Positions 15,101-29,380 of a stretch of DNA of 33,098 nucleotides are shown one piece after another. Origin of the DNA: Actinomycetota bacterium. GTDB taxonomy: Bacteria; Actinomycetota; Thermoleophilia; Solirubrobacterales; 70-9. The stretch covers positions 1 through 33,098 of the forward strand of contig JAFDWG010000329.1 of the NCBI GenBank assembly GCA_018268605.1, given 5' to 3'. The notes under the pieces are model-generated. The model was not told the DNA's origin. It did no database searches and was given only the letters and a program-made list of their open reading frames with translations. The translations under genes and the position numbers were made by a program. How positions within the stretch are numbered: position 1 is the first letter of the stretch; each line of letters starts with the position of its first letter.

Positions 15101-17427
15101 AACCGCCGACGGCGTCCTTCACCGCCTCGCCGAACCCGGTGAACACCAACGCGACGGTCGCCTTCAACGCGTCGGCGTCGAAAGACCTCGACGGGACCAT
15201 CACCAAATACGAATGGGATCTGGACGGCAACGGGACCTACGAGACGACCACGACCACGGCGAGCGCCACGGCCACCTACGCGACCGCGGGCGAACGGACG
15301 GTCCGCCTGCGCGTCACCGACGACCGCGGCGCCACCGGGACCGCGACCTCGACCGTGACCGTGAAGAACCAGCCGCCGACGGCCTCCTTCACCGCCACCC
15401 CGACCACGACGCCGACCGGGGGCACGATCGCCCTCGACGCCTCGGCCTCGGGCGATCCCGACGGCGCGATCGCCAAATACGAATGGGATCTGGACGGCAA
15501 CGGGACCTACGAGACCAGCACCGGCACCACGCCGACGGTGAGCACCAGCTTCGCCACGGCGGGGAGCTACGCGATCGGCCTCCGGGTGACCGACAACGCC
15601 GGCGCGACGGCGACGACGACCCGCACGGTGACGATCCAGAACCGTGCGCCGGTCGCCACCTTCACCGCGACGCCGAACCCGGCCACCGCGGGCCAGGTGG
15701 TCAGCTTCAACGGGTCCGGCTCCAACGATCCCGACGGGACGATCACCAGATACGAATGGGATCTGGACGGCAACGGCACGTTCGAGACCAGCACCGGGAC
15801 CACGCCGACGGCGAGCACCACCTACGCCACCTCCGGCGAACGCAACGTCGGCCTGCGCGTCACCGACAACGCCGGCGCCACGTCGACCTTCACCAAAACG
15901 GTGACGATCGCCAACCAGCCGCCGACCGCGTCGTTCACGGCGACCCCGACCTCAGCCCCGACCGGGACCAGCGTCGCCTTCAACGCCTCGGCGTCGAAAG
16001 ACTCCGACGGGACGATCGCCAAATACGAATGGGATCTCGACGGCAACGGGACCTACGAGACCACCACCACGACCCCGACCACGAGCACCACCTACACCAC
16101 CCCGGGTGCGCGGACGGTGGGCCTGCGGGTCGTCGACAACTCGGGCGGGACCGCGACCACGACGGTGGCCGTGACGGCGACCAACCGGGCCCCGACCGCC
16201 TCCTTCACCGCCACCCCGAACCCGGTGCCGACCGGGACCAGCGTCACCTACAACGCGGCCGCCTCGAGCGATCCCGACGGGACGATCGCCAAATACGAAT
16301 GGGATCTGGACGGCAACGGGACCTACGAGCTGAACACCGGCTCGACGCCCAGCGCGATCTCCAACTACGCCACCGCGGGAACGCGGAACGTCGGCCTGCG
16401 GGTGACCGACAACTCGGGCGCGACCGCGACCAGCACGGTCAGCGTGACCGTCCAGAACCGCCCGCCGGTCGCCTCCTTCACCGCCACCCCGAACCCGGTC
16501 ACGGCCGGCACCTCGGTCGCCTTCAGCGCCGCCGGGTCGAGCGATCCTGATGGGACGATCACCAAATACGAATGGGATCTGGACGGCAACGGGACCTACG
16601 AGACGAACACCGGGACGACCAACAAAACCAGCCGCACCTACACCACCGCGGCGACGACCAACGTCGGCCTGCGCGTGACCGACAACTCGGGCGCGACCAG
16701 CACCACGACGGTGCCGGTGGTGGTCCGCGGCCCCTACCAGGCGGCGGTCCTCGGCACGCCCGGTCTGGTCGACTACTGGCGCCTCGGTGAGACCTCGGGA
16801 ACCACCCTCGCCGATTCGGTCGGGAGCGCCAACGCGACCGCCTTCAACGGCGTCGCCCTGAACGTCTCCCATCCGCTGACCTCAGACACCAACACCGCCG
16901 CCACCTTCGACGGCTCCAACGACTACGCGAGCGCCGCGGTCAACCTCTCCGGTACCTCCAAGGTGACGATCGAATTCTGGCTGCGCTGGAACGAACTCCT
17001 CTACAACAGCAACAACGACCAGGTCCTGGAGCTGACCAACAACCTCAACAACAACAACGGCGGCTTCCTGATCAATCCGGCCTCGAGCACCTCCGGCGGC
17101 CGCTTCGAAGTGGCGATCGGGCGCGGCACCTCGCGCAACAACATCTACTTCACCCGGCCGAGCACGCTGACCTGGCACCACTACGCGATCGTGATCGAAA
17201 CGACGGCCGCGGCGGCAAACCAGATCGTCGCCTACGTCGACGGGAAAGTGGTCTCGGTGGCCAAGGGCTCGAGCGGCACCGGCGCCGGCAACTTCGCCAA
17301 CTCGACGCTCTACTTCATGTCGCGCGGCGGGACCACCCAGTTCGCGCCGGGCAGCCTCGACGAGCTCGCGATCTACAACACCGCCCTCTCGGCCACCCAG
17401 ATCGCGGCGCATTACGCCGCCCGCTAA
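9151..17427 (+). CDS. Giant secreted protein: DMF-amidase-beta-like domain, 10 PKD and 5 LamG-like domains
   Basis: 2758 residues from ATG 9151 (GAGGAG at 9135-9140). GTG 9250 gives 2725 residues and a better signal peptide: a basic stretch, the hydrophobic ALAVAAAGVLAAFLLLASF, and likely cleavage after ARSQA. Residues about 82-626 resemble the N,N-dimethylformamidase beta-subunit family, with YRMGYYGGEGG, SYTDDISIQQ and SGHSEYWS. Glu344 and Tyr242/245/268 are only candidate ligands for the Fe site known in that family. Domain order after this is PKD1-2, LamG1, Gly/Glu linker, LamG2, PKD3, LamG3, PKD4, Gly/Glu linker, LamG4, PKD5-10, LamG5. PKDs carry the KYEWDLDGNGTYE and GLRVTDNSG signatures; LamGs carry HHYAFVLNTAAPAAEQIVPY and a DGK motif. 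No LPXTG or C-terminal TM is seen. Probably a surface or matrix protein binding glycan; any amidase activity is unproven. Confidence 0.92.
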   Translation: MTPNPNPLLKPLTWPKTTRFSASGADSRCHTGTVHELRSAPRHTLPHTLPFGHALAVAAAGVLAAFLLLASFGTARSQAAVSCPSAIPVVNENQCKTGSEGYETVDDSPNLGGFPTQTSVNLGESVTLKIGYKGTVSPTRTAAISVYRMGYYGGEGGRLVNSASNVAINNDFTCEAMNETTGEVSCANWKATYTIPGTAFPASGVYMAKVKASTGDETQIIFTVRNDASHSRVLFVLPMATYEAYNTFGGTWNGEEGGKSLYFGTRGYGTGPLTGSSRAAKVSFDRPLAQAGVEQNWFYGPDQELLYWMEKQGYDISYTDDISIQQNPGQLLNHDTVVISGHSEYWSLNEYNAFMAAREAGVNIASFSSNTAYWKVRYENNGRTLVCYKTVEGSGSAGSGQVSQNDWGPDGIKGTADDAAGPDGIAGTADDNPLTATTTWRDNGAPAGDPSAPPGGRVGPNMPENQLFGIMYVGDNDSENFPLTIPAANGAGEFAGSPIWRNTGISKNSATTINEPLVGWEWDAVPTQAQYLKFEPEGVERVFSTNVQTVNDNSWIQDEGRLRNTAPPPGQPGTVGAVRYKAKSGAEVFASGTMYWARGLVGYADPRIQQATYNILSEMGEAPNTPEEGITLDPGGSNHAPSASFTMSQNPAKTATPITFDASASKDSDGSIVKYEWDLNGDGTFETTTTTPKVTNSYAAEGTYNVRLRVTDNGGATDLSVQTLTIINNQPPTASFTITPESGIKNEAIAFNAAGSSDPDGTVAKYEWDFDGNGTYESSSGSSPTTTHTYTIPGNYTVGLRVTDNGGKTATTTRPVTIGSGEPSHYATSVLATPGLSHYWRMGEMNGPTFSDSKGSSAATATGGVTFGEPGAIAEDTDHSAKFDGSTGAAQAPVNLAATHTLTVEFWLKWNAFENDDKLAMEFTNNFNENVGGFLVDPNAPQLAGTFGVAIGSGNSRNNVFFERPSAGAWHYYAFVINTAAPAAEQIVPYVDGKAVSFQKLDSGTGAGNFANSILNFMSRAAGSNFGAGNLDEVALYERALSAATIAKHFKGEMVEGTEGSVGSEGGTGGGGGGEEGPPLGGTGASYTDAVLATPGIADYWPLSEAAGPTIADTVGGSPLNATGEPTFGATGGVPGETTSSVKFDGVNDTATGPLQLGGQTAITVSFWMKWNAWANNDELAMEYTPNFNDNPGGFLVDPNSSFGKFAVSIGIGSSRNVALFERPTAGVWHHYAFVLNSAAPAAEQIVPYVDGFPVVYTKAVNGEGGPAFANSTLALMSRGGKELFGAGNLQDVAIFTKALSAATISQQHASNGPNGRPQATFTAPTTAKVGEKLTFDASGSKDPNGTIVKYEWDLDGNGSYETDTGTTPSVSTTYTGAGKVNVGLRVTDNSGNTGSATRTVTVEETTTGGGGESGPADYSGSVLGTPGLVDYWPLSETSGSVFADKAGTSPATMLGAPTLGVPGGAPGDTGTAASFNGSSNAASAPLQLGGQTAVTVEFWMKWDEWKNEDQLAFEYTPNFNDNNGGFLVDPNSSYGQFAVALGRGSSRNVALFARPSAGVWHHYAFVLDTAAAANEQIVPYVDGKPVAYTKAAEGTGAGPFANSTLYFMSRGGTGLWGAGDLQDVAVYDRPLSATQVANHFAGVKGNQPPTASFTAPASVKVGEAVTLDASASKDSDGTVEQYEWDLDGDGTFETSTGANPKVTRSFSTAGQVQLSLRVTDNSGATAVTSHTITVQPAEGGGEEGGGGNGSGTAYRAAVAATPGLQHFWSLGEKTGSTLADPVGGAVATTVGEPALGQPGAIAGDTDTSVGFDGINDAATAPLSLSGDSAITLEFWMKWNEWSNNDALAFEFTPNFNDNNGGFLVDPNSSFGAFAVGIGRGESRNVATFARPTAGVWHHYAFVLNTAAPAAEQIVPYVDGKPVEYAKVANGTGAGNFADATLNFMSRAGTSLNGAGTLDDVAIYGTPLSAATISGHYEAATPNKPPTASFTASPNPVNTNATVAFNASASKDLDGTITKYEWDLDGNGTYETTTTTASATATYATAGERTVRLRVTDDRGATGTATSTVTVKNQPPTASFTATPTTTPTGGTIALDASASGDPDGAIAKYEWDLDGNGTYETSTGTTPTVSTSFATAGSYAIGLRVTDNAGATATTTRTVTIQNRAPVATFTATPNPATAGQVVSFNGSGSNDPDGTITRYEWDLDGNGTFETSTGTTPTASTTYATSGERNVGLRVTDNAGATSTFTKTVTIANQPPTASFTATPTSAPTGTSVAFNASASKDSDGTIAKYEWDLDGNGTYETTTTTPTTSTTYTTPGARTVGLRVVDNSGGTATTTVAVTATNRAPTASFTATPNPVPTGTSVTYNAAASSDPDGTIAKYEWDLDGNGTYELNTGSTPSAISNYATAGTRNVGLRVTDNSGATATSTVSVTVQNRPPVASFTATPNPVTAGTSVAFSAAGSSDPDGTITKYEWDLDGNGTYETNTGTTNKTSRTYTTAATTNVGLRVTDNSGATSTTTVPVVVRGPYQAAVLGTPGLVDYWRLGETSGTTLADSVGSANATAFNGVALNVSHPLTSDTNTAATFDGSNDYASAAVNLSGTSKVTIEFWLRWNELLYNSNNDQVLELTNNLNNNNGGFLINPASSTSGGRFEVAIGRGTSRNNIYFTRPSTLTWHHYAIVIETTAAAANQIVAYVDGKVVSVAKGSSGTGAGNFANSTLYFMSRGGTTQFAPGSLDELAIYNTALSATQIAAHYAAR
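15100..16731 (+). repeat. Six consecutive PKD-encoding repeats (about 270 bp each)
   Basis: Six PKD modules in a row start near 15100, 15370, 15643, 15916, 16186 and 16459. They share nearly identical DNA around AATACGAATGGGATCTGGAC, far closer than PKD protein conservation alone needs. This points to recent duplication or continuing recombination inside the gene. The four earlier PKDs, separated by LamG domains, are more diverged at the DNA level. Confidence 0.85.
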
Positions 17428-17613: not shown

Positions 17614-17646
17614 ACAGATGCGATGAGCAATCGCGGGAGGAGAACG

Positions 17647-19104
17647 ATGATCAGCAGCGCCAAAAGACGGCGCACGCGCCTGCGTGCGATCGCCATCGCC
17701 CTGGTGAGCCTCGTGGCTCTCCTGGTGGCGAGCTCGTTCGCCTTCGCGAAGGGCGGGGTCGACCCGGGGGTCGTCAGTAGCGCCGGCCAGCGCAGCGGGA
17801 TCGACGATCTGATCCGCGCCCGCGCCGAGGGCAAGCCGCACAAGAAAGCGCACCACCGTCGCAAGCACCATCGCCACCGGAAGCACCATCGCTCACCGTC
17901 GTCGTCAGGCAACTCCTCGGGCGGCGGCAAGCGCACGCCCTCGAAGTCGCAGCCCGGCACGAACCCGCCTCCGGCCCCGCCGCCCGCGACCACGTCACCG
18001 GCGACCGAAACGCCGTTGCCGGCCCCACCGGCCCCGACCCCGCCTCCGGCCGCCTGCACCACCTTCGCGAGCAGCGTCGCCAGCGCCCAGAGCATGGTCG
18101 TCTCCGCCGCGCCCGGTGCCGTCATCTGCCTTGCCGACGGCACCTACGGCAGCGTCAAACTCAGCGGCTCGAAGGCGAGCCCCGGGGTGACGTTGCGGGC
18201 GACCGACCCGGGCGCCACCACGATCGACGGCGCCACGATCGACGGTACCGGCCTCACGCTCGCCTACTTCAACGTCACCGACGAAGTCGAGGTCGAAGAG
18301 GGCTCGAAGCTGATCACGATCCAGGACAACAAGATCACCGGCGGCTACTTCGGCGTCGACGCCTGCAACTCCGACTCGACCACCTGCGACGACGTGAAGA
18401 TCGTCGGCAATAAGTTCCAGGGCCCCTACGGCGAGGACGGGATCAGGGCGAACCGCTACCACGACGGCAACGGCGACGGCCTCGGCCTGCTGGTCGAAGG
18501 CAACGAGTTCACCGGGATCCGGGAGAACGGGAACCACTCCGACTGCCTGCAGGCGGTCTGGACCGGCGACAACCTCGTGTTCCGCAAGAACTACCTGCAC
18601 GACAACCGCTGCCAGGGGTTCTTCGTCAAGGATCAGAACTCGCTCTGCGGGTCCGGCAGCTCCGGGGTGTGCGGGCCGGTCCAGGGCATCCGGGTAGAAG
18701 ACAACCTCTTCCTTCGAGACCAGGAACCCTGCGCGTCGAGCGCCCCCGGATGCGGGCAGCCGACGATCGTGCACATCTTCGGCCCCTACACGAACGCGGT
18801 GATCTCCCACAACACCGTCTGGGGCGACGGGTTGACCTCGCAGCTTGCCCTGCGCGAAGGAGTCGCGGCGGGCACGCGGGTGGAAGAAAACGCGATCTAC
18901 CGCTTCTGGACCGACACCGACGCCTCCCAGGCGACCTTCCAGAACAACACCTATTGCAAGCTGGAAGGGGCCTGGCCGTCCGCACGGCCGGGCAGCAGCG
19001 TCGAATGCGCCCCCGCCTTCGCCAACGCGGGGGCCGACGACTACCGCCTCGCCAGCGGGCGCGGGGTCGACTGGGCACCGTCGGAAGTGCATTTCGGTCC
19101 CTGA
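17647..19104 (+). CDS. Secreted right-handed beta-helix protein, paralog 1 (with cationic linker)
   Basis: From ATG 17647 (GGGAGGAG at 17635-17642) the product is 485 residues. An in-frame ATG at 17623 has no comparable ribosome site. The signal peptide is MISSAKRRRTRLRAIAIALV followed by a hydrophobic run ending SFAFA. Residues about 55-145 form a linker, first His/Lys/Arg-rich (KKAHHRRKHHRHRKHH), then Pro/Thr/Ala-rich. The remaining 340 residues are a parallel beta-helix of the pectate-lyase-like/NosD type, with YFGVDACNSD, GPYGEDGIRANRYHDGNGDG, HSDCLQAVWTGDN and HDNRCQGFFVKDQ plus several paired Cys. Likely a secreted glycan-binding protein or a polysaccharide lyase or epimerase; catalytic residues cannot be assigned. 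First of three tandem paralogs. Confidence 0.88.
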   Translation: MISSAKRRRTRLRAIAIALVSLVALLVASSFAFAKGGVDPGVVSSAGQRSGIDDLIRARAEGKPHKKAHHRRKHHRHRKHHRSPSSSGNSSGGGKRTPSKSQPGTNPPPAPPPATTSPATETPLPAPPAPTPPPAACTTFASSVASAQSMVVSAAPGAVICLADGTYGSVKLSGSKASPGVTLRATDPGATTIDGATIDGTGLTLAYFNVTDEVEVEEGSKLITIQDNKITGGYFGVDACNSDSTTCDDVKIVGNKFQGPYGEDGIRANRYHDGNGDGLGLLVEGNEFTGIRENGNHSDCLQAVWTGDNLVFRKNYLHDNRCQGFFVKDQNSLCGSGSSGVCGPVQGIRVEDNLFLRDQEPCASSAPGCGQPTIVHIFGPYTNAVISHNTVWGDGLTSQLALREGVAAGTRVEENAIYRFWTDTDASQATFQNNTYCKLEGAWPSARPGSSVECAPAFANAGADDYRLASGRGVDWAPSEVHFGP

Positions 19105-19147: not shown

Positions 19148-20359
19148 ATGCGGCGCCTGCCAGGACCACGGATGGGATACGCCTTCGCGGCCGTCGTCGT
19201 CGCCTTGCTGGCCGCGGCCGCCGTCGTCCTCGCCTCCTCGGGCTCGAGCCCCGAGCCGGCGCCGGAACCGGCAGCGGCGCCCGTGCCTGCGGATGCCAGG
19301 CCCGAGTGCGACGCCCTCGCCACCAGCACCGAGGACATCAACTCCGCGCTCTCCCACGCGTCCCCCGGGGAGGTCGTCTGCGTCGCCGACGGGACCTACC
19401 CCGAACTCGACCTGAGTGGCGAGTTCCCCGGTGGCGGAGTCGAAGTGCGGGCCGAGAATCCAGGCGCGGCGACGATCGAAGGCGCGACGATCTCCGGCCA
19501 GGGCATCACCTTCGCCCGCTTCTTCGTCGACGGCGAAATCGTGATCGAACCGGAATCCAAGGAAATCACGATCGCCCATGACCGGATCACCGGCGGTTAC
19601 CTGGGGATCGACGCCTGCAACTCCGACACCGCCACCTGCGACGACGTGAAGATCATCGGCAATAAGTTCCAGGGCCCCTACGGCGAGGACGGGATCAGGG
19701 CGAACCGCTACCACGACGGCAACGGCGACGGCCTCGGCCTGCTGGTCGAAGGCAACGAGTTCACCGGCATCCGCGAGGACGGCAACCACTCCGACTGCCT
19801 GCAGGCGGTCTGGACGGGCGACAACCTGGTCTTCCGCAAGAACTACCTCCACGACAACCGCTGCCAGGGCTTCTTCGTCAAGGACCAGGACGACCTCTGC
19901 GGCCAGGGAGTCGAAGGCGTCTGCGGCCCGATCCACGGCATCCGCGTCGAAGACAACCTCCTGGTCCGCAACCACGAACCCTGCGAGCCGGGCACCGAAG
20001 GCGGCTGCGGCCAGCCGATCTACATGCACATCTTCGGCCCCTACACCGACGCCGTCATCTCCCACAACACGATCTGGGGCGACCACCTCGACTCCCAACT
20101 CGCCCTGCGCGAAGGCGTCGCCCCCGGCACCAAGGTCGAAGACAACGCGATCTACCGCTTCTGGACCGACACCGACGCCTCCAAGTCCGAATTCCGCGAC
20201 AACACCCTCTGCCGCCTGGAAGGCGAATGGCCCGAATCCCGCCCCGGGATGCAGGTCGACTGCAAACCCCCGTTCCAGGACCCCTCGGTCGACGATTACC
20301 GCCTGCCGGACGGGCGCGGGGTCGATTGGGCACCGAGCGAAGAGCATTACGGGCCGTAG
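19148..20359 (+). CDS. Secreted right-handed beta-helix protein, paralog 2
   Basis: 403 residues. The N-terminus MRRLPGPRMGYAFAAVVVAL runs into an Ala/Val-rich hydrophobic segment and SSGSSPEPAPEPAAAPVPA, so it is a signal peptide or membrane anchor followed by a short Pro/Ala linker. The beta-helix part matches paralog 1 almost residue for residue: YLGIDACNSDTATCDDVKII, EDGIRANRYHDGNGDGLGLL, HSDCLQAVWTGDNLVF, HDNRCQGFFVKDQ. It ends with a shared DYRLPDGRGVDWAPSEEHYGP motif. It lacks the cationic linker. The gap to the preceding gene is 43 bp, so they are likely co-transcribed. A 112-bp tract (19656-19767) is identical to paralog 1, suggesting gene conversion or recent duplication. Function as for paralog 1. 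Confidence 0.88.
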   Translation: MRRLPGPRMGYAFAAVVVALLAAAAVVLASSGSSPEPAPEPAAAPVPADARPECDALATSTEDINSALSHASPGEVVCVADGTYPELDLSGEFPGGGVEVRAENPGAATIEGATISGQGITFARFFVDGEIVIEPESKEITIAHDRITGGYLGIDACNSDTATCDDVKIIGNKFQGPYGEDGIRANRYHDGNGDGLGLLVEGNEFTGIREDGNHSDCLQAVWTGDNLVFRKNYLHDNRCQGFFVKDQDDLCGQGVEGVCGPIHGIRVEDNLLVRNHEPCEPGTEGGCGQPIYMHIFGPYTDAVISHNTIWGDHLDSQLALREGVAPGTKVEDNAIYRFWTDTDASKSEFRDNTLCRLEGEWPESRPGMQVDCKPPFQDPSVDDYRLPDGRGVDWAPSEEHYGP

Positions 20360-20476: not shown

Positions 20477-20553
20477 CGAACGGTCAGAAATCTGCCGTGT
20501 TCCTTATCCGCCTATACGACGGGTTTCGAACAGCGCAGATTCCTGACCGTTCG
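20477..20553. repeat. Inverted repeat, 18 of 19 bp, 39-nt loop
   Basis: CGAACGGTCAGAAATCTGC (20477-20495) pairs with GCAGATTCCTGACCGTTCG (20535-20553) with one mismatch. The right arm contains CCTGACCGT, also present near 6082 in the other hairpin-rich region. No coding role is seen. Confidence 0.75.
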
Positions 20554-20596
20554 GGGCCCGGCGTACGACCCGGGCCCAGCCCTACCCCCACATCCC

Positions 20597-20647
20597 CGGC
20601 CGTCTCGGCCACGGCCACGCCGGCCAGGGCCGTGGCCGAGACGGCCG
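20597..20647. repeat. Perfect 20-bp inverted repeat, 11-nt loop
   Basis: CGGCCGTCTCGGCCACGGCC (20597-20616) and its exact complement (20628-20647) flank an 11-nt loop. It occupies the same place relative to the upstream block GCCCTACCCC as the 21-bp hairpin at 6187-6233, yet its stem sequence is different. It could act as a terminator for paralog 2. Confidence 0.82.
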
Positions 20648-20754
20648 CGTTTGCCGCGACGCCTTGCGTCCCTTTCCTCGGGCGCCGGCTCCGCTCGCCC
20701 AGATCCATCCGAAATTCCTCCACGGGCCAACCCCGCGTGGATCTAGAGTGGCGC

Positions 20755-21921
20755 ATGGCCCTTTCCCGCTCTCCGGGCGGCCTTGCCGTGGCCTTGGCCT
20801 TTGCCTGCGTCGGCGCGCTCGCGATCGTCGGCGCGGCGCCGGCGGTGGCGAAGCCGGCGCCCACCCGTTGCGACGCCACTGTCGGCAGCCTCGATGCCGC
20901 CCGCTCGCGGGTCCAGTCCTCGGCGCCGGGGAAGGTCGTCTGCCTGAAGGCCGGGACCTACGGCAAGCTCTCGCTCCGTGGGGCCGGCAAGGGCGCCCCG
21001 GTCATCCTGCGTCCCGCCACAGCGGGTAAGGCGACGATCGACGGGGCGGAACTGTCGGGCTCCGGGGTGACGCTCGAAAGCTTCCAGATCTCCGACGAAG
21101 TCGAGATCGAGGAGGGGGCTTCGCGGATCTCGATCGTCCACGACCACATCTACGGCGGCTACTTCGGGATCGACGCCTGCAACTCCGATACGGCGCCGTG
21201 CAGTGACGTCGCGATCGTCGGCAACAAGCTCACCGGGCCCTACGGCGAGGACGCGATCCGCGCCAACCGCTACCACGACGCCAACGGCGACGGGGTCGGC
21301 CTTCTGATCGAAGGCAACGAGATCACCGGGGTCGACGAGAACGGCAACCACTCCGACTGCCTACAGACGGTGTGGACCGGCGACCACCTGGTCTTCCGCA
21401 AGAACTACCTGCATGACAACCACTGCCAGGGCTTCTTCGTCAAGGACCAGAACGACCTCTGTGGCGGCGGCAATTCCGGTGTCTGTGGCCCGGTCGAAGG
21501 GATCCGGCTCGAAGACAACCTTTTTCTCCGTAACGACGCCCCCTGCGCCAACACCGACTGCGGCCCTTCGTTGACCGTCCACATCTTCGGCCCGACCAAG
21601 GGGATCCGGATCAAGCAGAACACGATCTGGACCCCAAGGGACGACCTGCCGATGGCGCTGCGCGAAGGGCCGTTCGGCGCGGTCACGATCGAACGCAACG
21701 TGATCTACCGCGGCTGGACCGACTGGCGCGGCGGCTTCCCGAATTGGACCGAGCGCGAAGACGTCGTCTGCAAGTGGGAAGGCTACCCGCGCCTCAGCCC
21801 CAGCTCCAAGCGCACCTGCAACCCCGGGTTCCGCAACCCGAAGACCGACGACTACCGACTGAAGAAGGGCGTGGCGGGGATCGACTGGAGCCCGGCCGAA
21901 GTCAGGTACGGGCCACGCTGA
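20755..21921 (+). CDS. Secreted right-handed beta-helix protein, paralog 3
   Basis: From ATG 20755 the product is 388 residues and starts with a standard signal peptide (MALSRSPGGLAVALAFACVG, cleavage likely after AVA or AKPA). The open frame extends to 20497, but that stretch runs through hairpins and is disregarded. The helix part keeps YFGIDACNSDTAPCSDVAIV, GPYGEDAIRANRYHDANGDG, HSDCLQTVWTGDHLVF and HDNHCQGFFVKDQ. It is more diverged than paralogs 1 and 2 and lacks a linker. It ends DYRLKKGVAGIDWSPAEVRY. Its last 20 bp overlap tail-to-tail with the adenylation gene. Function is as uncertain as for its paralogs. Confidence 0.88.
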   Translation: MALSRSPGGLAVALAFACVGALAIVGAAPAVAKPAPTRCDATVGSLDAARSRVQSSAPGKVVCLKAGTYGKLSLRGAGKGAPVILRPATAGKATIDGAELSGSGVTLESFQISDEVEIEEGASRISIVHDHIYGGYFGIDACNSDTAPCSDVAIVGNKLTGPYGEDAIRANRYHDANGDGVGLLIEGNEITGVDENGNHSDCLQTVWTGDHLVFRKNYLHDNHCQGFFVKDQNDLCGGGNSGVCGPVEGIRLEDNLFLRNDAPCANTDCGPSLTVHIFGPTKGIRIKQNTIWTPRDDLPMALREGPFGAVTIERNVIYRGWTDWRGGFPNWTEREDVVCKWEGYPRLSPSSKRTCNPGFRNPKTDDYRLKKGVAGIDWSPAEVRYGPR

Positions 21922-23479
21922 GCGGGTCGCCGGCCTCCAGCGAGGCCAGCATCGCGAGGCGGTCGAACTTGCCGTTCGCGTTCAGCGGCAGCTCCTCGAG
22001 CAGCTCGAAGCGGCGCGGCACCATGTAATCGGGCAGGCGTTCCGACAGCGCTTCGCGGAGCGCCGCCACGTCGGCCCCGGGGTCGGCGATGAAGACCGCG
22101 ATGCCGCCCGCGCCCGAGTCGGTCAGCGGCCAGCCCACCGCGATCGCCGCGTCCACCCCGCTCGCCTCGCGCAGCACCGCCTCGATCTCGCCCAGCTCGA
22201 CCCGGTGCCCCATGACCTTGATCTGGTGGTCCATCCGCCCCAGATAGAGGATCGGCTCCCCGGCGGCGAGCGGCCGCCTGACCCGGTCCCCGGTGCGGTA
22301 ATGGACGGCCTCGGCGCCAGGCGGGTGGACGAAGGCGGCGGCGGTCTTCTCGGCGTCGAGCCAGTACCCCGGCGTCACCTGCGGGCCGCTCAGGAGCAGC
22401 TCCCCTTCCTCGCCCGGTGCGACCTCGCGCAGGTCGGGGCCGGCGACCACCGTCCGCGTGCTGCCGAAGGCCTCACCGATCGCGACGACGCCGTTCAGCT
22501 CCGCCGCGCCGCTCTCGTCGGCCGGGTCGAAGGGCTGAACGGTGCAGGCGATCGACGCCTCGGTCGGACCGTAGAGGTTCTCCACGGTCGAGTTCGCCGC
22601 CGCCGCGGCCCAGGCTCGGGCCAGCTCGACCGGCAGCGGCTCGCCGCAGAAGAGGCTCGCGCGGAGGGTCGGGAAGGCGCCCGGCTTCAGCATCCGCAGC
22701 TTGCGCATCATCGCCCCCAGTGAGGGGACCGAGAACCAGACGGAGAGCTCCGAGTCGCGGATGAAGCGGGCCGGGGACATCAGCTGGGCCCCCGAGGGGC
22801 AACAGAGACAGCCCCCCGCGTCCCAGGTGACGAACTGGTCGAAGACCGAGAGGTCGAAGGTGAGGTCGAAGGTCTGCGAGAAGCGGTCGGCGGGGCCGAA
22901 GCCGTAGCGCTCGCGGATCGCGGCGAGGAACGAGGTGACGTTGGCGTGGGTGACCCCTACCCCCTTCGGCCGGCCGGTGCTGCCGGAGGTGAAGAGCAGG
23001 TAGGCGATCGCCTCGGGGCCCGCGGCGGGCGGGACCGGATCGGCGCGGCCGGCGCGGGCGGCGATCGTCGCCTCCGCGTCGATCACGATCGGCGGCGCCT
23101 CCAGGCCCCTGAGCAGCTCGCCGACGATCGCGGCACGCTCGCGGTCGACGATCAGCACCGGGGCGCCGGAGCGGCGCAGCATCTCTGCCAGGCGGTCGGG
23201 CGGAAACCCCGGGTTCAGCGGCACGTAGCCGTGTCCGGCCCAGAGCGCGCCCAGCACCCCGGCGTAGGCGGCGGAGCTGCGGGCCGCGTAGACGGCGGTC
23301 AGCGGCGGCGCCCCGTGAGGCTCGCGATCGAGGATCGCGGCGGCTAGGACCTGCGCGCGCTCGGCGAGGTCGCCATAGAGAAGGCGCTCGCCCGTGACCT
23401 CGAGCGCGGGGCGCTCCGGGTGGGCCGCCGCGGCGCGGAGGAACCCGTCAAGCAGCGTGGCGGACTTCCCTGTGGTCAC
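21902..23479 (-). CDS. Stand-alone amino-acid adenylation enzyme (DltA/NRPS A-domain-like)
   Basis: 525 residues from GTG 23479. ANL-superfamily motifs are in order: A3 FTSGSTGRPKG (163-173); A4 FDLSVFD (208-214), whose Asp209 fits the aspartate that holds the substrate alpha-amino group; A5 YGPTE (303-307); A7 YRTGD (394-398); A8 GRMDHQIKVMGHRVE (414-428); and A10 PLNANGK with catalytic Lys504. No carrier or condensation domain is fused. The expected reaction is ATP-dependent aminoacyl-AMP formation and loading of a separate phosphopantetheine carrier. A lone carrier is encoded at 26971-27264, in the operon that diverges from this gene across 73 bp. DltA-like D-alanine activation is one option; the substrate is not readable by eye. 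Confidence 0.92.
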   Translation of the reverse strand: MTTGKSATLLDGFLRAAAAHPERPALEVTGERLLYGDLAERAQVLAAAILDREPHGAPPLTAVYAARSSAAYAGVLGALWAGHGYVPLNPGFPPDRLAEMLRRSGAPVLIVDRERAAIVGELLRGLEAPPIVIDAEATIAARAGRADPVPPAAGPEAIAYLLFTSGSTGRPKGVGVTHANVTSFLAAIRERYGFGPADRFSQTFDLTFDLSVFDQFVTWDAGGCLCCPSGAQLMSPARFIRDSELSVWFSVPSLGAMMRKLRMLKPGAFPTLRASLFCGEPLPVELARAWAAAAANSTVENLYGPTEASIACTVQPFDPADESGAAELNGVVAIGEAFGSTRTVVAGPDLREVAPGEEGELLLSGPQVTPGYWLDAEKTAAAFVHPPGAEAVHYRTGDRVRRPLAAGEPILYLGRMDHQIKVMGHRVELGEIEAVLREASGVDAAIAVGWPLTDSGAGGIAVFIADPGADVAALREALSERLPDYMVPRRFELLEELPLNANGKFDRLAMLASLEAGDPLSVART

Positions 23480-23552
23480 AGCCTAGAAACGCTTTGGGTA
23501 CGGCTCTACTTGCGTCGCGGAAAGTCTGGCCGCGCCGGCGCGTTATTCGGCT
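23480..23552. promoter_or_regulatory. 73-bp divergent promoter region
   Basis: This gap separates the divergent adenylation gene and flippase operon, so it must hold promoters for both if they are not read through from outside. TTATTC (23542-23547) lies just before ATG 23553, and TAGGCT on the - strand lies just before GTG 23479. Neither gene has a visible ribosome site. Both might be leaderless, but I cannot assign -35 boxes with confidence. Confidence 0.4.
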
Positions 23553-25115
23553 ATGAGCGCTTCCACGGCCAGTGCCGATTCCCTGACGGTTGATCACAAG
23601 GACGGGCTGCGCGAAAAGCATGCCCACGCGGGCGTGGCGATGGCGATCGCGACCCTGGCGATGGCCGGATCATCCGGGATCCAGGCGCTCCTCTACCTCT
23701 CCTCCTTCGGCGTCGGGGGCAAGACCGACGGCTTCTTCGTCGCCTTCGCCCTCTACTCGAGCTTCGGCGTCTTCAGTCAGAGCATCCGCGTCACCTCGGC
23801 GCCGCTCCTGGTCGGCGCCCGGCCGCGGATGACCACCCGGGAGTTCGCCGCCGGCCTGGTCCTGATCGCGATCCCGGTGGCGATCGTGACGATCCCGCTG
23901 GCCTCCCAGCTCGGCGAGCTGATCGCCCCCGGCCTCACCGACGCGGGCCGCAACGTCACCGTCGAAGCGCTGCCGGTGCTCGGCGTCGCGATGATCCTCC
24001 AGCTCTGGGCCGCGGGCGGGGCCACGGTGCTGGCGATCCGCGACCGCTTCGACCGCATCGCCCTGGCCTACATCTCCGGCGCGCTCGCCGGCCTGGTCGT
24101 CTACCTCGCCGTCTCCGGGTCGGCCGGGGAGCTCTCGCTCGGCTGGTCGATGATGGCGATGGCGATCGTCACCGCCGCGATCATGCTCGACGGCGTCCGC
24201 TCCGGCCGCGAGGACCGAGCCCCGGCGCCCGCCCTGGCGCGCTCGGTCCGCGCCCTCGCCCGTCCGGTCGGCCTGATCCTCGGCAGCACGCTCATCTATC
24301 TCGCCTTCAACGCGCTCTTCGTCGTCTCCCTCGCCTTCGCCGGCAAGTATGACCCGGGCGACGCGACCGTCCTCTCCTACGCCTACCTCTTCGCCTCCTA
24401 CCTGGTCGCCGCCACCGGCTTCGCGCTGGGGATGTCGCGGATCGCCGACATGCGGCGCGGCGCCCTGGTCGACTGGCGCGAGGTGATCGCCGACACCGTG
24501 CCGGCGGGCTTCCGCTACTCGATGATGCTGGCGGCGCCGGCGATGGCGGTGCTGATCTCCGGCGGCGCCCAACTGATCGGCGAGGTCCTGCCGAAGAGCT
24601 TCGACGCCGCCAAGGTCGACCAGCTCCAGGTCTTCTCCGCCCTCCTCTGCCTCTGGGTCGTCGCCGCCCTGCTGGTCAACCTGCTGCTGCCCGCGATGTT
24701 CGCGCTAGGCCGCTCGCGGTTCGTCAACTGGATGGCGCCGGTCGTCTTCATCGCCCACATCGCCGTCACGGCGCTCGGCGGCGTCCTCTTCGGCGCCGAC
24801 GGGGTGGTCGGCGCCGCCTTCATCGTCCCCGCCGCCTTCGCCGTCCTCCTGCTGATGCGGGGCGCCGGTCGTGGGGCGGGGCCGATCGCCAGGGACCTCG
24901 CCCGCGACGGCCTGCGCTTCTCCCTGCTCGCCGCCTTCTCCTTCGGGCTCGGCTACCTGGTCGGCGCCGAGCTCGCCGACGGCATCGTCTCCTCACTGGT
25001 CACGCTGGTCATCGGCTGCGGCCTCTATCTGGCGACCGCGACCCGCTTCGCCCCCGAACAGACGCGCCTGCTGCTCGGCGCGATCAAGCCCGCCTCGAAG
25101 CCCGCATCGGCATGA
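23553..25115 (+). CDS. MurJ/MviN- or Wzx-like lipid-linked glycan flippase
   Basis: 520 residues: a hydrophilic N-terminus of about 25 residues, then roughly 14 hydrophobic helices starting at VAMAIATLAMAGSSGIQALL. The segment YLSSFGVGGKTDGFFVAFAL resembles the TM1-2 region of MurJ-like MOP exporters, where a partner-protein or substrate Asp follows the first helix. Later come GFALGMSRIADMRRGALVDW and a Leu/Val-rich end. The likely role is export of a polyprenyl-linked glycan or decorated unit. It is a second flippase for this locus, quite different from the one at 7626-9161, which suggests a separate glycan. The stop overlaps the next start by ATGA (25112-25115). Confidence 0.83.
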   Translation: MSASTASADSLTVDHKDGLREKHAHAGVAMAIATLAMAGSSGIQALLYLSSFGVGGKTDGFFVAFALYSSFGVFSQSIRVTSAPLLVGARPRMTTREFAAGLVLIAIPVAIVTIPLASQLGELIAPGLTDAGRNVTVEALPVLGVAMILQLWAAGGATVLAIRDRFDRIALAYISGALAGLVVYLAVSGSAGELSLGWSMMAMAIVTAAIMLDGVRSGREDRAPAPALARSVRALARPVGLILGSTLIYLAFNALFVVSLAFAGKYDPGDATVLSYAYLFASYLVAATGFALGMSRIADMRRGALVDWREVIADTVPAGFRYSMMLAAPAMAVLISGGAQLIGEVLPKSFDAAKVDQLQVFSALLCLWVVAALLVNLLLPAMFALGRSRFVNWMAPVVFIAHIAVTALGGVLFGADGVVGAAFIVPAAFAVLLLMRGAGRGAGPIARDLARDGLRFSLLAAFSFGLGYLVGAELADGIVSSLVTLVIGCGLYLATATRFAPEQTRLLLGAIKPASKPASA

Positions 25116-26974
25116 GCGCCACGCCGCGTACCGCAACCGAGCGGTCGCCGTGGGCCGGGCGCGCCCATGAACTCGGCAGGCGCGTCGCCGCCGCCACGGA
25201 CGCCCAGGCCGCGGCGGTCGTCGGCGTCTTCTTCGTCATCCTCGCGGCCCTCAGCCGGCAGGCCTGGGGCTCACCCTCGGTCGACGCCGGCCACGAGCTC
25301 ACCGTCGCCTCGATGATCGCCGAAGGACATCAGCCCTACGCCGACATCCGCTACTTCTACGGCCCACTCGGGGTCTACGCGCTGGGCGGCACCTTCGCGA
25401 TCTTCGGCGCCTCCTTCACGACCGCGTTCGCCTTCGGCCTGGTCCAGGCGGCGGCCATCTGCGCCGCCTTCTACCTGTTGGCGCGCCGGCTGCTCGATGT
25501 CGTCACCGCCTGCGTCGCGACCCTGATCGTCGCCGCGATCGGCTTCTCCGGCACCGCCTTCAACTTCGTCCTCCCCCACACCAACTCCGCCACCTTCGGG
25601 CTCCTCAGCACGCTCCTGATGCTGCTGGCGCTGTCCCATAAGCGCCTGGTGCTCGCGAGCCTCGCCGCCGGCCTCGTCTGCCTCACCCGGCCCGAGTTCG
25701 CCGCCATCGCCATCCTCACCCTCGGCGCCTACCTGCTCGGCACCTGGCGCCAGGAAGGTTGGGGACCGACCCTGCGCGCCCTCCCTCGCCTGGCCCTCCC
25801 GGGGCTCCTCCTCGCCGGGACCGTCTACGCCGTGCTGGCCGCCGAAGCGGGCGCCTCGCGGCTCTTCACCGAAAACCTCTGGCCGGTGAAGATGCTGAGC
25901 TCCGCCGGCTTCGCCTCCCAGGAAGCGTGGGCGCCGAAAACCTTCGAAGGCCTCGTCGCCACCCTCGCCCGCGCGGGCACCTACCTCCTCCTCTTCGGCA
26001 GCGTCGTCGCCACCGCGGTCCTCGTCGCCCGCGAGCACACGACCGGTGAGCGGATCAAGGCCCTCTGGCCGCTGCCCTTCGCGATCGTGCTGATCGGCTT
26101 CGTCGACCTCGCCTGGCGCGCGCTCGGCATCTGGGAGCCGGCGCGCGAAGCGGTGCAGGAAGAGCTCTCCCACCTGATCATCGGGATGAGCTGGCTGCCG
26201 GCGCTCGGATTCATCGCCTGCGTCCTGCTCGCGGTTCGCTTCCTCAAGGGCAAGAGCGCGCCGATCACCGGCAACTGGGCCTTCGACCTGGCGTTGGTCG
26301 CCTGCGCCGCCGCGCTCGGCGCCCGCGCCTACGACGCCTTCACCGCCGAGGGCTCCTACGCCCCGTACTACGCGCCGCCGCTGGTGCTGCTGCTGGCCGT
26401 GCTCCACGACCGGGTGGCCAAGCGCTGGCCGCAGGCGCGCGCCGCCGCCGCGCTGGCGCTGCTGGCGGTCGCGGTCGGGCTCGCCGCCTACGCCGAGGGC
26501 GCTCTCTACCCGCACGAAAGCACGGTCGTCCACACCGAACGCGGCTCCTTCAAGACCACCGCCGCCTCCGCCCCCGTCCTGCAGTCGACGCTCGACTGGA
26601 TCGACACCCACACCGAACCCGGCGAAGCGGTCCTCGCCGTCCCCGCCGACGCCGGCATCGACTTCATGAGCGACCGGGAGGTGGCCCTCTACAACCCGAT
26701 GTTCCTGCCCGGCCTGCTCTACGACCGCGCCGAAGAACGCGAAGCGATCGCCCAGCTGAAGGCCGAGGGCGTCCGCTACGCGGTCGTCGACAAGCGGAAC
26801 TTCGACCGCTATCCGCAGGAAAAATTCGGGATCGAATACAACCGGCCGTTCGCCGCCTGGATCGAGCGCGATCCGCCGGTGGCCGAATTCGGCGACGGAG
26901 CGCGGGTCGGCGGCGAGAACCCGGCGACCAGCTTCACGATCTACGACATCTCCGGCGAAAGCGGGGGCGGATGA
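25112..26974 (+). CDS. GT-C-like membrane glycosyltransferase (ArnT/PMT type)
   Basis: 620 residues. After a first TM (AAAVVGVFFVILAALSRQAW), the first outer loop carries GSPSVDAGHELTVASMIAEG then YADIRYFYGPLG. Acidic residues (Asp and Glu) sit where GT-C enzymes have their catalytic loop motif. About ten to twelve TM helices follow, and a C-terminal soluble part of about 150 residues starts near HESTVVHTERGSFKTT. Such enzymes transfer sugars from polyprenyl-phosphate donors on the outside of the membrane. Four-base overlaps couple it to the flippase and to the carrier protein. Family-level confidence is good; acceptor and sugar are unknown. Confidence 0.78.
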   Translation: MSATPRTATERSPWAGRAHELGRRVAAATDAQAAAVVGVFFVILAALSRQAWGSPSVDAGHELTVASMIAEGHQPYADIRYFYGPLGVYALGGTFAIFGASFTTAFAFGLVQAAAICAAFYLLARRLLDVVTACVATLIVAAIGFSGTAFNFVLPHTNSATFGLLSTLLMLLALSHKRLVLASLAAGLVCLTRPEFAAIAILTLGAYLLGTWRQEGWGPTLRALPRLALPGLLLAGTVYAVLAAEAGASRLFTENLWPVKMLSSAGFASQEAWAPKTFEGLVATLARAGTYLLLFGSVVATAVLVAREHTTGERIKALWPLPFAIVLIGFVDLAWRALGIWEPAREAVQEELSHLIIGMSWLPALGFIACVLLAVRFLKGKSAPITGNWAFDLALVACAAALGARAYDAFTAEGSYAPYYAPPLVLLLAVLHDRVAKRWPQARAAAALALLAVAVGLAAYAEGALYPHESTVVHTERGSFKTTAASAPVLQSTLDWIDTHTEPGEAVLAVPADAGIDFMSDREVALYNPMFLPGLLYDRAEEREAIAQLKAEGVRYAVVDKRNFDRYPQEKFGIEYNRPFAAWIERDPPVAEFGDGARVGGENPATSFTIYDISGESGGG

Positions 26975-27264
26975 GCGACGGGACCACCACGGGGGTCGAC
27001 GTGGCGACGGTTCGCGCGCGCATCCTCGAGGCCTGCGGCCCCGCCCTGTCCGTCTGCGGCGTCGACCTCGCGGCGCATCCCGCCGATCTCGACCTGCGCG
27101 CCTGCGGGGCGATCGACTCGCTCGGCTTCATCGAGCTGGTGAGCGACCTGGAGGAAGCCTTCGGGGTCGAGCTGGAGCTCGAAGACATGGATCCGGAGCG
27201 ACTGACAATGCTCGAGTCACTGGCCGCGGCCGTCGCCGCGCAGGCCTCCGGGGGGTCGCGGTGA
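26971..27264 (+). CDS. Stand-alone acyl/peptidyl carrier protein
   Basis: 97 residues. The phosphopantetheine site is in GAIDSLGFIELVSDLEEAFG, with Ser50 as the attachment residue in the usual D-S-L context. The acidic helix II and VELELEDMDPERLTMLESLA follow the four-helix carrier fold. It starts with ATGA overlap on the GT-C gene and ends with GTGA overlap on the acyltransferase gene. With the divergent adenylation enzyme it makes a DltA-DltC-like pair. Alternatively it could carry a fatty or small acyl group for the neighbouring acyltransferase. Fatty-acid-synthesis ACP is unlikely because no fab genes are nearby. Confidence 0.9.
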   Translation: MSDGTTTGVDVATVRARILEACGPALSVCGVDLAAHPADLDLRACGAIDSLGFIELVSDLEEAFGVELELEDMDPERLTMLESLAAAVAAQASGGSR

Positions 27265-27761
27265 GGTACGAGTCGACCTGGCCCGGCGCCAAACGCCGGA
27301 TCCTCGCGCTGGCTGCGCTCTACGGGCCCGGTGCCGAGACGACCCGGGTGCGGATGCACCGTGCCCGCGGGGTGAAGATCGGCGAGGGCTGCTTCATCGG
27401 CACCGACGTGATCCTCGAGACCGCCTTCCCACACCTGATCGAGATCGGCGACGGCGTCGACATCGGCATGCGGACCACGGTGATCGCCCACCAGCAGGGC
27501 GAGATCGCCGACGAGGGAGTGCCGTCGGTGGTGATCGGCGACGACGTCTTCATCGGCCCCTGCTCGGTCCTTCTCCCCCACGTGACGATCGGCGACGGCG
27601 CGGTGGTCACCGCCGGCAGCGTCATCACCACCTCCGTGCCTTCCCTGACCATGGTCCGCGGTAACCCCGCACAGGTGGTCGCCACCTGTGAGCGCCCGCT
27701 CGGCCGCCAGGTTGCGCTGCGGGAGTTCTACCGCGGCCTGAAGCCGGTCGGACGAGGATGA
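27261..27761 (+). CDS. Left-handed beta-helix (hexapeptide-repeat) acyltransferase
   Basis: 166 residues. Hexapeptide repeats run from about residue 38 to 140: VKIGEGCFIGTDVILE, IEIGDGVDIGMRTTVIAHQQ, VVIGDDVFIGPCSVLLPHVT, IGDGAVVTAGSVITTSVPS, then the closing VRGNPAQVV typical of sugar O-acetyltransferases. His77 in VIAHQ is the likely catalytic base. Family members form trimers and use acetyl-CoA or acyl-ACP. Sitting between a lone carrier protein and a deacetylase-like gene, it may accept an acyl or aminoacyl group from that carrier and pass it to a sugar (inference). GTG start; both ends overlap neighbours by 4 bp. Confidence 0.9.
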   Translation: MRYESTWPGAKRRILALAALYGPGAETTRVRMHRARGVKIGEGCFIGTDVILETAFPHLIEIGDGVDIGMRTTVIAHQQGEIADEGVPSVVIGDDVFIGPCSVLLPHVTIGDGAVVTAGSVITTSVPSLTMVRGNPAQVVATCERPLGRQVALREFYRGLKPVGRG

Positions 27762-29380
27762 CCGGGGCCGACCCCAGGCTCCTCGTCGGCGTTTTCGCCG
27801 ATGAGACGGCGACCCGCCGGACCCGCCTCCTTGCGGCGCTCGAGCTCGCCTTCCCGGTGCGCTTCGAGGCGCGTCGGCCGGGGGAGCTCGGCGGCCTCGA
27901 CGCGGTACTCGACCGCGGCAACGGCGTCGCCGCGCGCGAAGCCGCGGCGACGGGCACGCCGGCGCTCCTGATGCTCGGCGAGGAGCCCGCCGAGGCCGCC
28001 GCCGAACCGGCGTCCTTCGACCTCGCGGGCTCGCCGCTCCTCGACCCGCGCCTGCGCGGCGCCTCGCTGCCCGACCGTCGCCTGCTGAGCGGTCTGCACA
28101 CCGAGGGCGCGGGGGACCGCCCCGGCCCCGACGCGACCGTCCTGGCTCGCTGGGGAGAGCACCCGGTCTGGTGGGCGGAGGGCCACCTGCGCGTATCGCT
28201 CCTGGCACCGCGGGAGCTGGGCGAGTGCGAGGCCCTGCGCGACCGCCTCTGCGAGGATCGCTCGCTCGCCCTGCTGCCCCTGGTCGAGTTCCTGCGCGGC
28301 GTCACCGCCGAGGCCGCCTGGGCGCCGCCGCCCCCGGCCGCCTCGTTCATCATCGACGACCCCAATCTGCATTGGCCGACCTACGGCTACATCCAGCTGC
28401 CGTCGCTCGCCCGTCACGCTCGCGCGCACGGCTACCACGCCGTCCTCGCCACCGTCCCGCTCGACACGCGTTGGGCCCATACCGCGGCGCTCGTCGCGAT
28501 CGCGGACGCAGCCGGAGCGATCTCCCTCGCCGTCCACGGCAACGACCACGACGGTGGTGAGCTCGGCCGCGTCGACACGACGATGGCGGCGACCGCCCTC
28601 GCCGCCCAGGCCCTCCGCCGCGTCGCCCGTTTCGAACGCCGCACCGGCCGCACGATCGAGCGGGTGATGGTGCCGCCCCACGAGGCCTGCTCGGCTGCCA
28701 CCGTGGCGGCGCTACTGCGCTGCGGCTACGAGGCGATCTCGATGACCATCCCCTTCCCCTGGCTCGGCGTCGCCCGCGGCGACTGGCTCGCCCGTCCGCC
28801 CCATGCCGACGCACTGGTCGGCTGGCGGTCGATCGACCGCGGCACGGGTCTGCCGACGATCCTCCGCCACCCCTTGATCGGCCGCTCCGCGACCGATATA
28901 CGCCTCCGCGCCTACCTCGATCAGCCGCTGGTCCTCTATGGCCATCACGACGATCTCGCTTCCGGCCTCGACCTTCTCGCCGACGCCCAGGCCGAGGTAG
29001 CCGCGATCGTCCCCGGGACGCGGTGGAAGTCCCTCGCCGCGATCGCCCGGCGCGCCTACGAGACCCGCCGCGAGGGCGCGAACCTCGCGATCCGCCCGCT
29101 CGGCAACCAGCTCCGCGTGGAGGTCCCCGCCGACGTCGAGACCCTCCGCTTCGAACCCCCCGCCGGCCCCTTCTCCCCCCGCCTGATCGTCGACGGGGTC
29201 AAGTACGAGTACGGCGAGCCGATCCCGGTCGTCGACGGCGCCGAGGTGGTGAGGGTCGACAGCGGCCCGACCCCGATCGAGCCCGCCGAGGTCCCCAGCC
29301 CCCGGCGCCGCCCCCTCGCGGTGGCACGGCGCCTCGCCGGCGAGTCCCGCGACCGCTTGGCGCCGTTGCTCGCTCGCTGA
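27758..29380 (+). CDS. Large NodB-like polysaccharide deacetylase-fold protein
   Basis: 540 residues, much longer than a bare CE4 domain (about 200). Residues 1-190 form an N-terminal domain I do not recognise (GVFADETATRRTRLLAALEL). The central part has FIIDDPNLHWPTYGY with Asp200-Asp201 and, 60 residues on, HGNDH (260-264). These fit the D...HxxxH metal triad of NodB-like deacetylases, although the classical TFDDG wording is lost. YGHHDDLASGLDLL near residue 395 may supply the late histidine. A C-terminal beta-rich domain (LRFEPPAGPFSPRLIVDGVK) and a basic Arg tail end the protein. No signal peptide is seen, so a cytoplasmic site is likely. Last gene of the coupled operon. A glycosidase or esterase on the same barrel is possible. 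Confidence 0.72.
   Translation: MTGADPRLLVGVFADETATRRTRLLAALELAFPVRFEARRPGELGGLDAVLDRGNGVAAREAAATGTPALLMLGEEPAEAAAEPASFDLAGSPLLDPRLRGASLPDRRLLSGLHTEGAGDRPGPDATVLARWGEHPVWWAEGHLRVSLLAPRELGECEALRDRLCEDRSLALLPLVEFLRGVTAEAAWAPPPPAASFIIDDPNLHWPTYGYIQLPSLARHARAHGYHAVLATVPLDTRWAHTAALVAIADAAGAISLAVHGNDHDGGELGRVDTTMAATALAAQALRRVARFERRTGRTIERVMVPPHEACSAATVAALLRCGYEAISMTIPFPWLGVARGDWLARPPHADALVGWRSIDRGTGLPTILRHPLIGRSATDIRLRAYLDQPLVLYGHHDDLASGLDLLADAQAEVAAIVPGTRWKSLAAIARRAYETRREGANLAIRPLGNQLRVEVPADVETLRFEPPAGPFSPRLIVDGVKYEYGEPIPVVDGAEVVRVDSGPTPIEPAEVPSPRRRPLAVARRLAGESRDRLAPLLAR

What the first reader, a model, noticed from the sequence alone, without database searches (positions are those of the whole stretch)
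21902..29380. Dlt-like aminoacyl/acyl decoration module wired into a glycan export operon
Seen: a lone adenylation enzyme with the amino-acid-type Asp209 and Lys504 diverges over 73 bp from an operon whose five genes are all joined by 4-bp overlaps: flippase, GT-C-like transferase, lone carrier protein, hexapeptide acyltransferase, NodB-like deacetylase. Known: in dlt systems DltA loads D-Ala on DltC, and the MBOAT protein DltB passes it outward. No MBOAT gene is present here. Inference: an amino acid (or other acyl group) is activated, held on the carrier and moved to a sugar by the hexapeptide enzyme. Deacetylation may free the amine or hydroxyl, and the product is then flipped. That would be a cytoplasmic counterpart of D-alanylation.
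Basis: partly seen in the sequence, partly recalled or inferred. Interest (0 to 1): 0.78.

Follow-up and report, generated by a model that had tools for sequence, protein, structure and literature searches.

The report
Carrier-protein amino-acid module in glycan locus
A soil-type bacterium (order Solirubrobacterales, inferred) carries a conserved three-gene set that probably activates a small amino acid (best guess glycine), parks it on a small carrier protein and moves it onto a surface sugar inside the cell, a variation on the known D-alanine and glycine envelope-decoration systems.

Summary
A stand-alone amino-acid adenylation enzyme (A; TIGR01733 above cut-off) diverges over 73 bp from five genes joined by 4-bp overlaps: MurJ-like flippase, possible GT-C, carrier protein (ACP), hexapeptide acyltransferase (LbH) and a CE4/NodB-like protein. 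The flippase, GT-C and NodB labels are weak (below cut-offs). The core A-ACP-LbH is a conserved cassette: seven Thermoleophilia loci hold the three together, mostly with overlapping genes. In 399 Thermoleophilia genomes this LbH subfamily occurs in five, all among the six with this A. The sixth lacks LbH and has two DltB-like MBOAT genes beside A-ACP; Pseudomonadota relatives of A also pair with MBOAT-type proteins. So LbH probably fills the transferase slot. Four LbH-bearing genomes have no MBOAT at all. The A pocket (DLFFLCLIAK, identical in six of the seven loci) resembles V. cholerae AlmE (glycine) and DltA, with AlmE's gating Leu and Cys kept; glycine is the best guess. The deacetylase-like gene is an optional neighbour. 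A cytoplasmic D-alanylation-like system is not unprecedented (AlmEFG), but use of a hexapeptide transferase for aminoacyl decoration of an exported glycan would be a new variant. No biochemistry was tested.

The parts
21902..23479 (-). Stand-alone aminoacyl adenylation enzyme (A), 525 aa; pocket DLFFLCLIAK (Asp209, Leu210, Phe213, Phe249, Leu276, Cys278, Leu302, Ile310, Ala311, Lys504)
   Evidence: TIGR01733 336.5 bits, cut-off 317.4; pocket mapping; conserved next to carrier/LbH in relatives
23480..23552 (.). 73-bp divergent intergenic region between A and the operon
   Evidence: ORF coordinates; no sigma-70 consensus found
23553..25115 (+). MurJ/MOP-like integral membrane protein, possible flippase; not conserved beside the module elsewhere
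   Evidence: TIGR01695 E 1.4e-12, far below cut-off; no homologue in L001, L021-L025
25112..26974 (+). Membrane protein, possible GT-C glycosyltransferase; not conserved beside the module elsewhere
   Evidence: PMT_2 23.9 bits, cut-off 26.1; no homologue in L001, L021-L025
26971..27264 (+). Stand-alone carrier protein (ACP), 97 aa, phosphopantetheine site Asp49-Ser50-Leu-Gly
   Evidence: PF00550 33.1 bits, cut-off 20.8; Ser50 invariant in seven; weak DltC similarity; PPTase PF01648 present in the genome
27261..27761 (+). Left-handed beta-helix (hexapeptide) acyltransferase, 166 aa, His77 invariant; proposed aminoacyl transferase
   Evidence: PF00132 53.6 bits; subfamily 271-307 bits in triad loci against 61 bits for the next LbH in the same six genomes; co-distribution with A
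27758..29380 (+). CE4/NodB-like (deacetylase-type) protein, 540 aa, optional neighbour; Asp200/Asp201, His260, His264 conserved
   Evidence: PF01522 E 0.18 only; alignment of seven; model pLDDT 77.9 with weak CE4 fold matches

Best explanation
A is an AlmE/DltA-type ligase that adenylates a small alpha-amino acid (most likely glycine, then alanine) and loads it as a thioester on the phosphopantetheine arm of the small carrier protein. The LbH protein then takes the aminoacyl group from the carrier in the cytoplasm and attaches it, as ester or amide, to a sugar precursor or lipid-linked unit of the surface polysaccharide made by this locus, which is afterwards flipped out. LbH thus fills the slot that the MBOAT DltB fills in D-alanylation and AlmG fills in lipid A glycylation. 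The CE4-like protein is an optional editing enzyme of the same glycan pathway (for example freeing an amine or hydroxyl on the acceptor). Shown by sequence and comparison: gene set, motifs, pocket, linkage, partner swap. Inferred: amino acid identity, loading, LbH as transferase, the acceptor, and the cytoplasmic site.
For: A-carrier-LbH are contiguous in L001, L021, L022, L023, L025 and L048, mostly with overlapping genes; in the window A is divergent. Of 399 Thermoleophilia genomes, six have this A at E<=1e-110 and five have this LbH at E<=1e-45, all among those six (Fisher p 7e-11, relatedness ignored). The exception L024 has A-carrier without LbH but two DltB-like MBOAT genes, each followed by an SGNH-type protein, on the same stretch. 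Pseudomonadota relatives of A sit beside an MBOAT (L072, pocket DLMFLCLIAK) or a divergent MBOAT-like protein (L064, L066-L069; hhalign prob 79, E 1.6e-5). No MBOAT at all in LbH-bearing G093, G156 (94-96% complete), G267 and G000. Pocket DLFFLCLIAK in six loci; AlmE DLHLFCLIA and DltA DLMTLCTVA from the PDB alignments. A review names AlmE Leu248 and Cys316 (here Leu210, Cys278) as the residues favouring glycine, and says that smaller residues in DltA, among them Thr for Leu, give room for D-Ala (here Phe249 by my alignment) (PMC11253843). In each of the six genomes, this A is the adenylating enzyme closest to DltA.
Against: LbH keeps the GNPA loop and is by sequence nearest acetyl-CoA enzymes (YvoF-like NF058585 86 bits, maltose/galactoside acetyltransferases), so it could be an ordinary O-acetyltransferase. 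Its own predicted model is too poor to inspect (pLDDT 61). L025 has the same LbH with two A genes of quite different pockets, so LbH is not tied to one amino acid. No acceptor is identified. Code-based substrate prediction is uncertain.
Confidence: 0.58

Rival explanations
1. LbH is an ordinary acetyl-CoA O- or N-acetyltransferase of the glycan, and the aminoacyl-carrier made by A serves another, unrecognised transferase in the locus.
For: Nearest characterised LbH enzymes use acetyl-CoA and the C-terminal GNPA loop is kept.
Against: This LbH subfamily was found only beside A-carrier in 399 genomes and is missing where MBOAT is present beside A-carrier. No other transferase candidate is shared by all seven loci.
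Confidence: 0.2
2. The carrier-bound group is a hydroxy acid or another acyl group, so this is an acyl decoration like the tetronate of the V. cholerae O1 antigen rather than aminoacylation.
For: A tetronate gene set including WbeL is used for N-acylation of perosamine (PMC3441752; that the set holds an activating enzyme, a carrier and an LbH-like transferase is from memory), and ACP plus AMP-dependent synthetase occur in Aeromonas flagellin glycan islands (PMC7874193).
Against: Asp209, the alpha-amine contact, is invariant in all eight; TIGR01733 is passed; pocket matches AlmE/DltA/IdnL7.
Confidence: 0.12
3. A and carrier belong to a small natural-product pathway (VinM/IdnL7-like, activating Gly, L-Ala or L-Ser) that happens to lie in glycan loci.
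For: IdnL7 (6AKD) and VinM (8K4R by recall) are among the best matches to the pocket region; [quoted passage not shown]
Against: No polyketide or peptide synthase nearby; loci hold Wzx, Wzz, Wzy and glycosyltransferases; linked LbH or MBOAT points to a polymer acceptor.
Confidence: 0.07

Closest known systems
AlmEFG lipid A glycylation (Vibrio cholerae)
   Same: Stand-alone glycine-type A enzyme plus small carrier, transfer without MBOAT; pocket 6 of 9 compared positions identical to AlmE (4OXI), including the gating Leu and Cys.
   Different: AlmG is an LPLAT-type transferase acting on lipid A; here an LbH protein in a polysaccharide locus, in an actinobacterial class; no LPLAT gene in the operon.
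Dlt system (DltA, DltC, DltB, DltD) for teichoic acid D-alanylation
   Same: A plus carrier architecture; pocket 5 of 9 positions shared with DltA 3FCC; a sister locus (L024) does carry DltB-like MBOAT and SGNH proteins.
   Different: Window and six sister loci have LbH instead of MBOAT; A scores 239 bits against a DltA cut-off of 560; pocket has Phe249 where DltA has Thr.
Tetronate N-acylation genes of the V. cholerae O1 antigen (wbe/rfb region)
   Same: WbeL, predicted to act in tetronate synthesis, is needed for normal acyl decoration of an O antigen sugar (PMC3441752); that WbeL is an activating enzyme and that the region holds a carrier and an LbH-like acyltransferase is recalled from memory, not checked here.
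   Different: Acyl group is a hydroxy acid, not an amino acid; perosamine acceptor.
IdnL7 / VinM small-amino-acid adenylation enzymes of macrolactam pathways
   Same: Stand-alone A enzymes acting with a stand-alone carrier; IdnL7 shares 6 of 9 pocket positions.
   Different: They build a protected starter unit for a polyketide synthase; no such synthase here.
YvoF-like and maltose/galactoside-type hexapeptide O-acetyltransferases
   Same: Fold family, active-site His region and GNPA loop of the LbH protein.
   Different: Those use acetyl-CoA; this subfamily is tied to an aminoacyl ligase and carrier.

Membership tests
Dlt D-alanylation system | DltA ligase equivalog (TIGR01734) | tested here: not met
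   239.2 bits vs cut-off 559.85; none over cut-off in the six genomes
Dlt D-alanylation system | Dedicated carrier (DltC) | tested here: inconclusive
   Stand-alone PF00550 carrier present, DltC models only 19.5-23.4 bits vs cut-offs 52-68
Dlt D-alanylation system | MBOAT transferase DltB | tested here: not met
   No PF03062 in the own genome, 85% complete
Dlt D-alanylation system | D-alanine as substrate | not testable with these tools
   Pocket has Phe249 where DltA has Thr; biochemistry needed
AlmEFG-type glycylation | Glycine-type A pocket (Leu248, Cys316 of AlmE) | tested here: met
   Leu210 and Cys278 aligned to them, same code in six loci
AlmEFG-type glycylation | LPLAT-type transferase AlmG | tested here: not met
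   No such Pfam family in any gene of the operon; rest of genome not searched
Amino acid adenylation domain, stand-alone | TIGR01733 above cut-off, Asp235 and Lys517 equivalents | tested here: met
   336.5 vs 317.4 bits; Asp209 and Lys504 invariant
Hexapeptide acyltransferase (LbH) | Hexapeptide repeats | tested here: met
   PF00132 53.6 vs 27 bits
Hexapeptide acyltransferase using aminoacyl-carrier | Transfer from aminoacyl-S-carrier | not testable with these tools
   Only genomic linkage and partner swap
CE4 / NodB polysaccharide deacetylase | PF01522 above cut-off | tested here: not met
   12.2 bits vs 23.1, E 0.18
CE4 / NodB polysaccharide deacetylase | Asp-His-His metal motif and fold | tested here: inconclusive
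   Motifs conserved in seven; CE4 structures among weak fold matches, best CE4 E about 1e-3

The most novel reading that the evidence does not exclude
A hexapeptide (LbH) enzyme acts as a true aminoacyl-carrier:sugar transferase, giving bacteria a soluble, cytoplasmic route to aminoacylated exported glycans, with the A-carrier pair able to plug into either an LbH (inside) or an MBOAT (outside) transferase during evolution.
Probability: 0.45. Interest if true: 0.66.

Novelty: new variant of a known kind. Interest (0 to 1): 0.52.

Why it matters
Amino acids on envelope polymers set surface charge and resistance to cationic peptides, and known routes use MBOAT (Dlt) or LPLAT (Alm) transferases. 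A carrier-dependent route with a small soluble hexapeptide enzyme would add a third transferase type, in a class whose surface glycans are little studied (my general knowledge), and would give a compact tool for attaching amino acids to sugars. The natural swap between LbH and MBOAT beside related A enzymes makes the question directly testable.

Tried and rejected
Searching the deacetylase-like protein in 61 relatives found only the own copy, so A and LbH were used as probes instead. The deacetylase as a core part was rejected: homologues L002-L005 lie in glycan loci without A or carrier within reach, and two of those genomes (G767, G768) have no related A at all. MurJ-like and GT-C genes as core parts were rejected. 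A shared gene upstream of the module in L001/L021 and L003/L004 was tested and rejected. The LbH structure model was too poor to use. The deacetylase-like protein had no match in PDB sequences. L023's and L022's own CE4-like proteins are a different family, only faintly similar to the window one. Paper searches found no description of an A-carrier-hexapeptide aminoacylation system; the library lacks most subscription journals.

Full report
Observation. A lies at 21902-23479 on the minus strand; after 73 bp come five plus-strand genes, each overlapping the next by 4 bp. A is an amino-acid adenylation enzyme by TIGR01733 (336.5 bits, cut-off 317.4) and not a DltA equivalog (239 bits, cut-off 560). 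The carrier is PF00550 and the next gene a hexapeptide protein. The flippase label rests on a remote MurJ similarity, GT-C on a sub-threshold PMT_2 match, and NodB on E 0.18 plus conserved Asp-His-His residues and weak CE4 fold matches of a moderate model.

Is it more than chance? A scan for relatives of the last gene brought L001, a Solirubrobacteraceae contig in which A (60% identical), carrier, LbH (67%) and the deacetylase-like gene (44%) are one operon with 4-bp overlaps. Searching A in 399 Thermoleophilia genomes gave six genomes; their neighbourhoods show A-carrier-LbH in L021, L022, L023 and L025 and A-carrier without LbH in L024. A further full triad, L048, lies in the Solirubrobacter pratensis genome. 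With the window this makes seven loci. The LbH profile at E<=1e-45 hits five of the 399 genomes, all among the six with A. In those six genomes the triad LbH scores 271-307 bits and the best other LbH only 61, so it is a dedicated subfamily. NRPS adenylation domains in one NRPS-rich genome reach at most 291 bits with the A profile, triad-type enzymes 859-919. A test in 396 genomes across the window's own phylum found only the window's genome and one of the same order at E<=1e-150.

The transferase slot. MBOAT genes are absent from four of the six genomes, including G093 and G156 (94-96% complete); G375 has one, about 0.93 Mb from its triad; G037, the genome without LbH, has two within the same contig stretch as its A-carrier pair. 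They are DltB-like (TIGR04091 148 bits for the one tested, below cut-off), are each followed by a protein with an SGNH-like GNSRT motif, and PF03062 is confirmed. In Pseudomonadota, 17 of 349 genomes hold a more distant A (357-580 bits). Of eleven neighbourhoods read, none had this LbH; L072 has an MBOAT and a putative SGNH protein beside an A with pocket DLMFLCLIAK, and L064, L066-L069 have, between A and carrier, a multi-pass protein with faint MBOAT similarity (hhalign probability 79, E 1.6e-5). So the A enzymes of this clade are commonly paired with an acyltransferase of MBOAT type, and LbH stands in its place in the seven loci. This is inference from comparison, not activity.

Which amino acid? 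Residues were mapped onto the ten GrsA code positions (positions recalled; anchors read from the PDB alignments). The window reads DLFFLCLIAK, identical in L001, L021, L022, L023 and L048. From the same alignments AlmE reads DLHLFCLIA, IdnL7 DCFFLALIT and DltA DLMTLCTVA. A review states that AlmE takes glycine, with Leu248 and Cys316 keeping out larger or D-amino acids, and that DltA gains room for D-Ala by smaller neighbours, Leu to Thr among them (PMC11253843). The window keeps that Leu (210) and Cys (278) and has Phe (249) at what I take to be the Leu/Thr position. Glycine is therefore the first guess. L024 (DNFFLALVDK) and the two A genes of L025 (DVAYVATIVK, DAYDIGHVEK) suggest that the module can carry other amino acids.

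Proposed working. A plus ATP gives aminoacyl-AMP, then aminoacyl-S-carrier (the carrier has the DSLG serine, and a phosphopantetheinyl transferase gene is present in all six genomes). LbH passes the group to a sugar in the cytoplasm before export. The acceptor is unknown; a DegT-type sugar aminotransferase at 162-1328 could supply an amino sugar, giving an amide like the N-acyl perosamine of V. cholerae O1 (PMC3441752), but the LbH is closer to O-acetyltransferases, which would favour an ester. The deacetylase-like protein follows LbH in the window, L001 and L021 only; L022 and L023 have another CE4-like protein nearby; homologues in L002-L005 work in glycan loci without A within 10 kb.

Comparison with the known. 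DltA-DltC-DltB is the obvious model, but the system fails its DltA and DltB tests. AlmE-AlmF-AlmG is nearer: glycine-type A, carrier, no MBOAT (PMC12930378; PMC3783018). It differs in transferase family and target. I rate it a new variant of a known kind. No described A-carrier-hexapeptide aminoacylation system was found in the papers held, which is weak negative evidence.

Limits. Genomes are mostly draft; the Fisher value ignores relatedness; cut-offs for A and LbH were chosen by me, though the score gaps are wide. L022 is a short contig and its glycan context is thin. Taxon of the window is inferred from its relatives.

Noticed in passing
window 9151-17427: A 2758-aa protein with a DMFA2_C domain, about ten PKD domains and five Laminin_G_3 domains, directly after the Wzx gene; looks like a giant surface or secreted protein.
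   Followed up: no
window 17623-19104, 19148-20359, 20497-21921: Three tandem right-handed beta-helix paralogues between the giant protein and A; similar beta-helix genes occur near several related loci.
   Followed up: partly
L025 8564-11766: Two tandem A genes with very different pockets (DVAYVATIVK and DAYDIGHVEK) feed one carrier and one LbH, hinting at a dipeptide or at alternative amino acids.
   Followed up: partly
L023 11268-18315: Downstream of a triad: a formyltransferase, a phosphatase-like gene, a second adenylating enzyme, an asparagine synthase-like gene, a second carrier and a second LbH of the triad subfamily.
   Followed up: partly
L064, L066, L067, L068, L069: A conserved carrier - divergent MBOAT-like membrane protein - A operon in Pseudomonadota with no Pfam or NCBIfam family for the membrane protein in the members tested; pocket DAYEVGSICK in the two read. 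Possibly an undescribed Dlt-like system.
   Followed up: partly
L072 6016-10269: A (pocket DLMFLCLIAK), a putative SGNH protein and a DltB-like MBOAT in a row in Pseudomonadota: a likely Dlt-like locus outside Gram-positives.
   Followed up: partly
L003 5509-7422; L021 11749-13611; L001 18-1088: Asparagine synthase-like genes recur in these glycan loci; their role is unclear.
   Followed up: no
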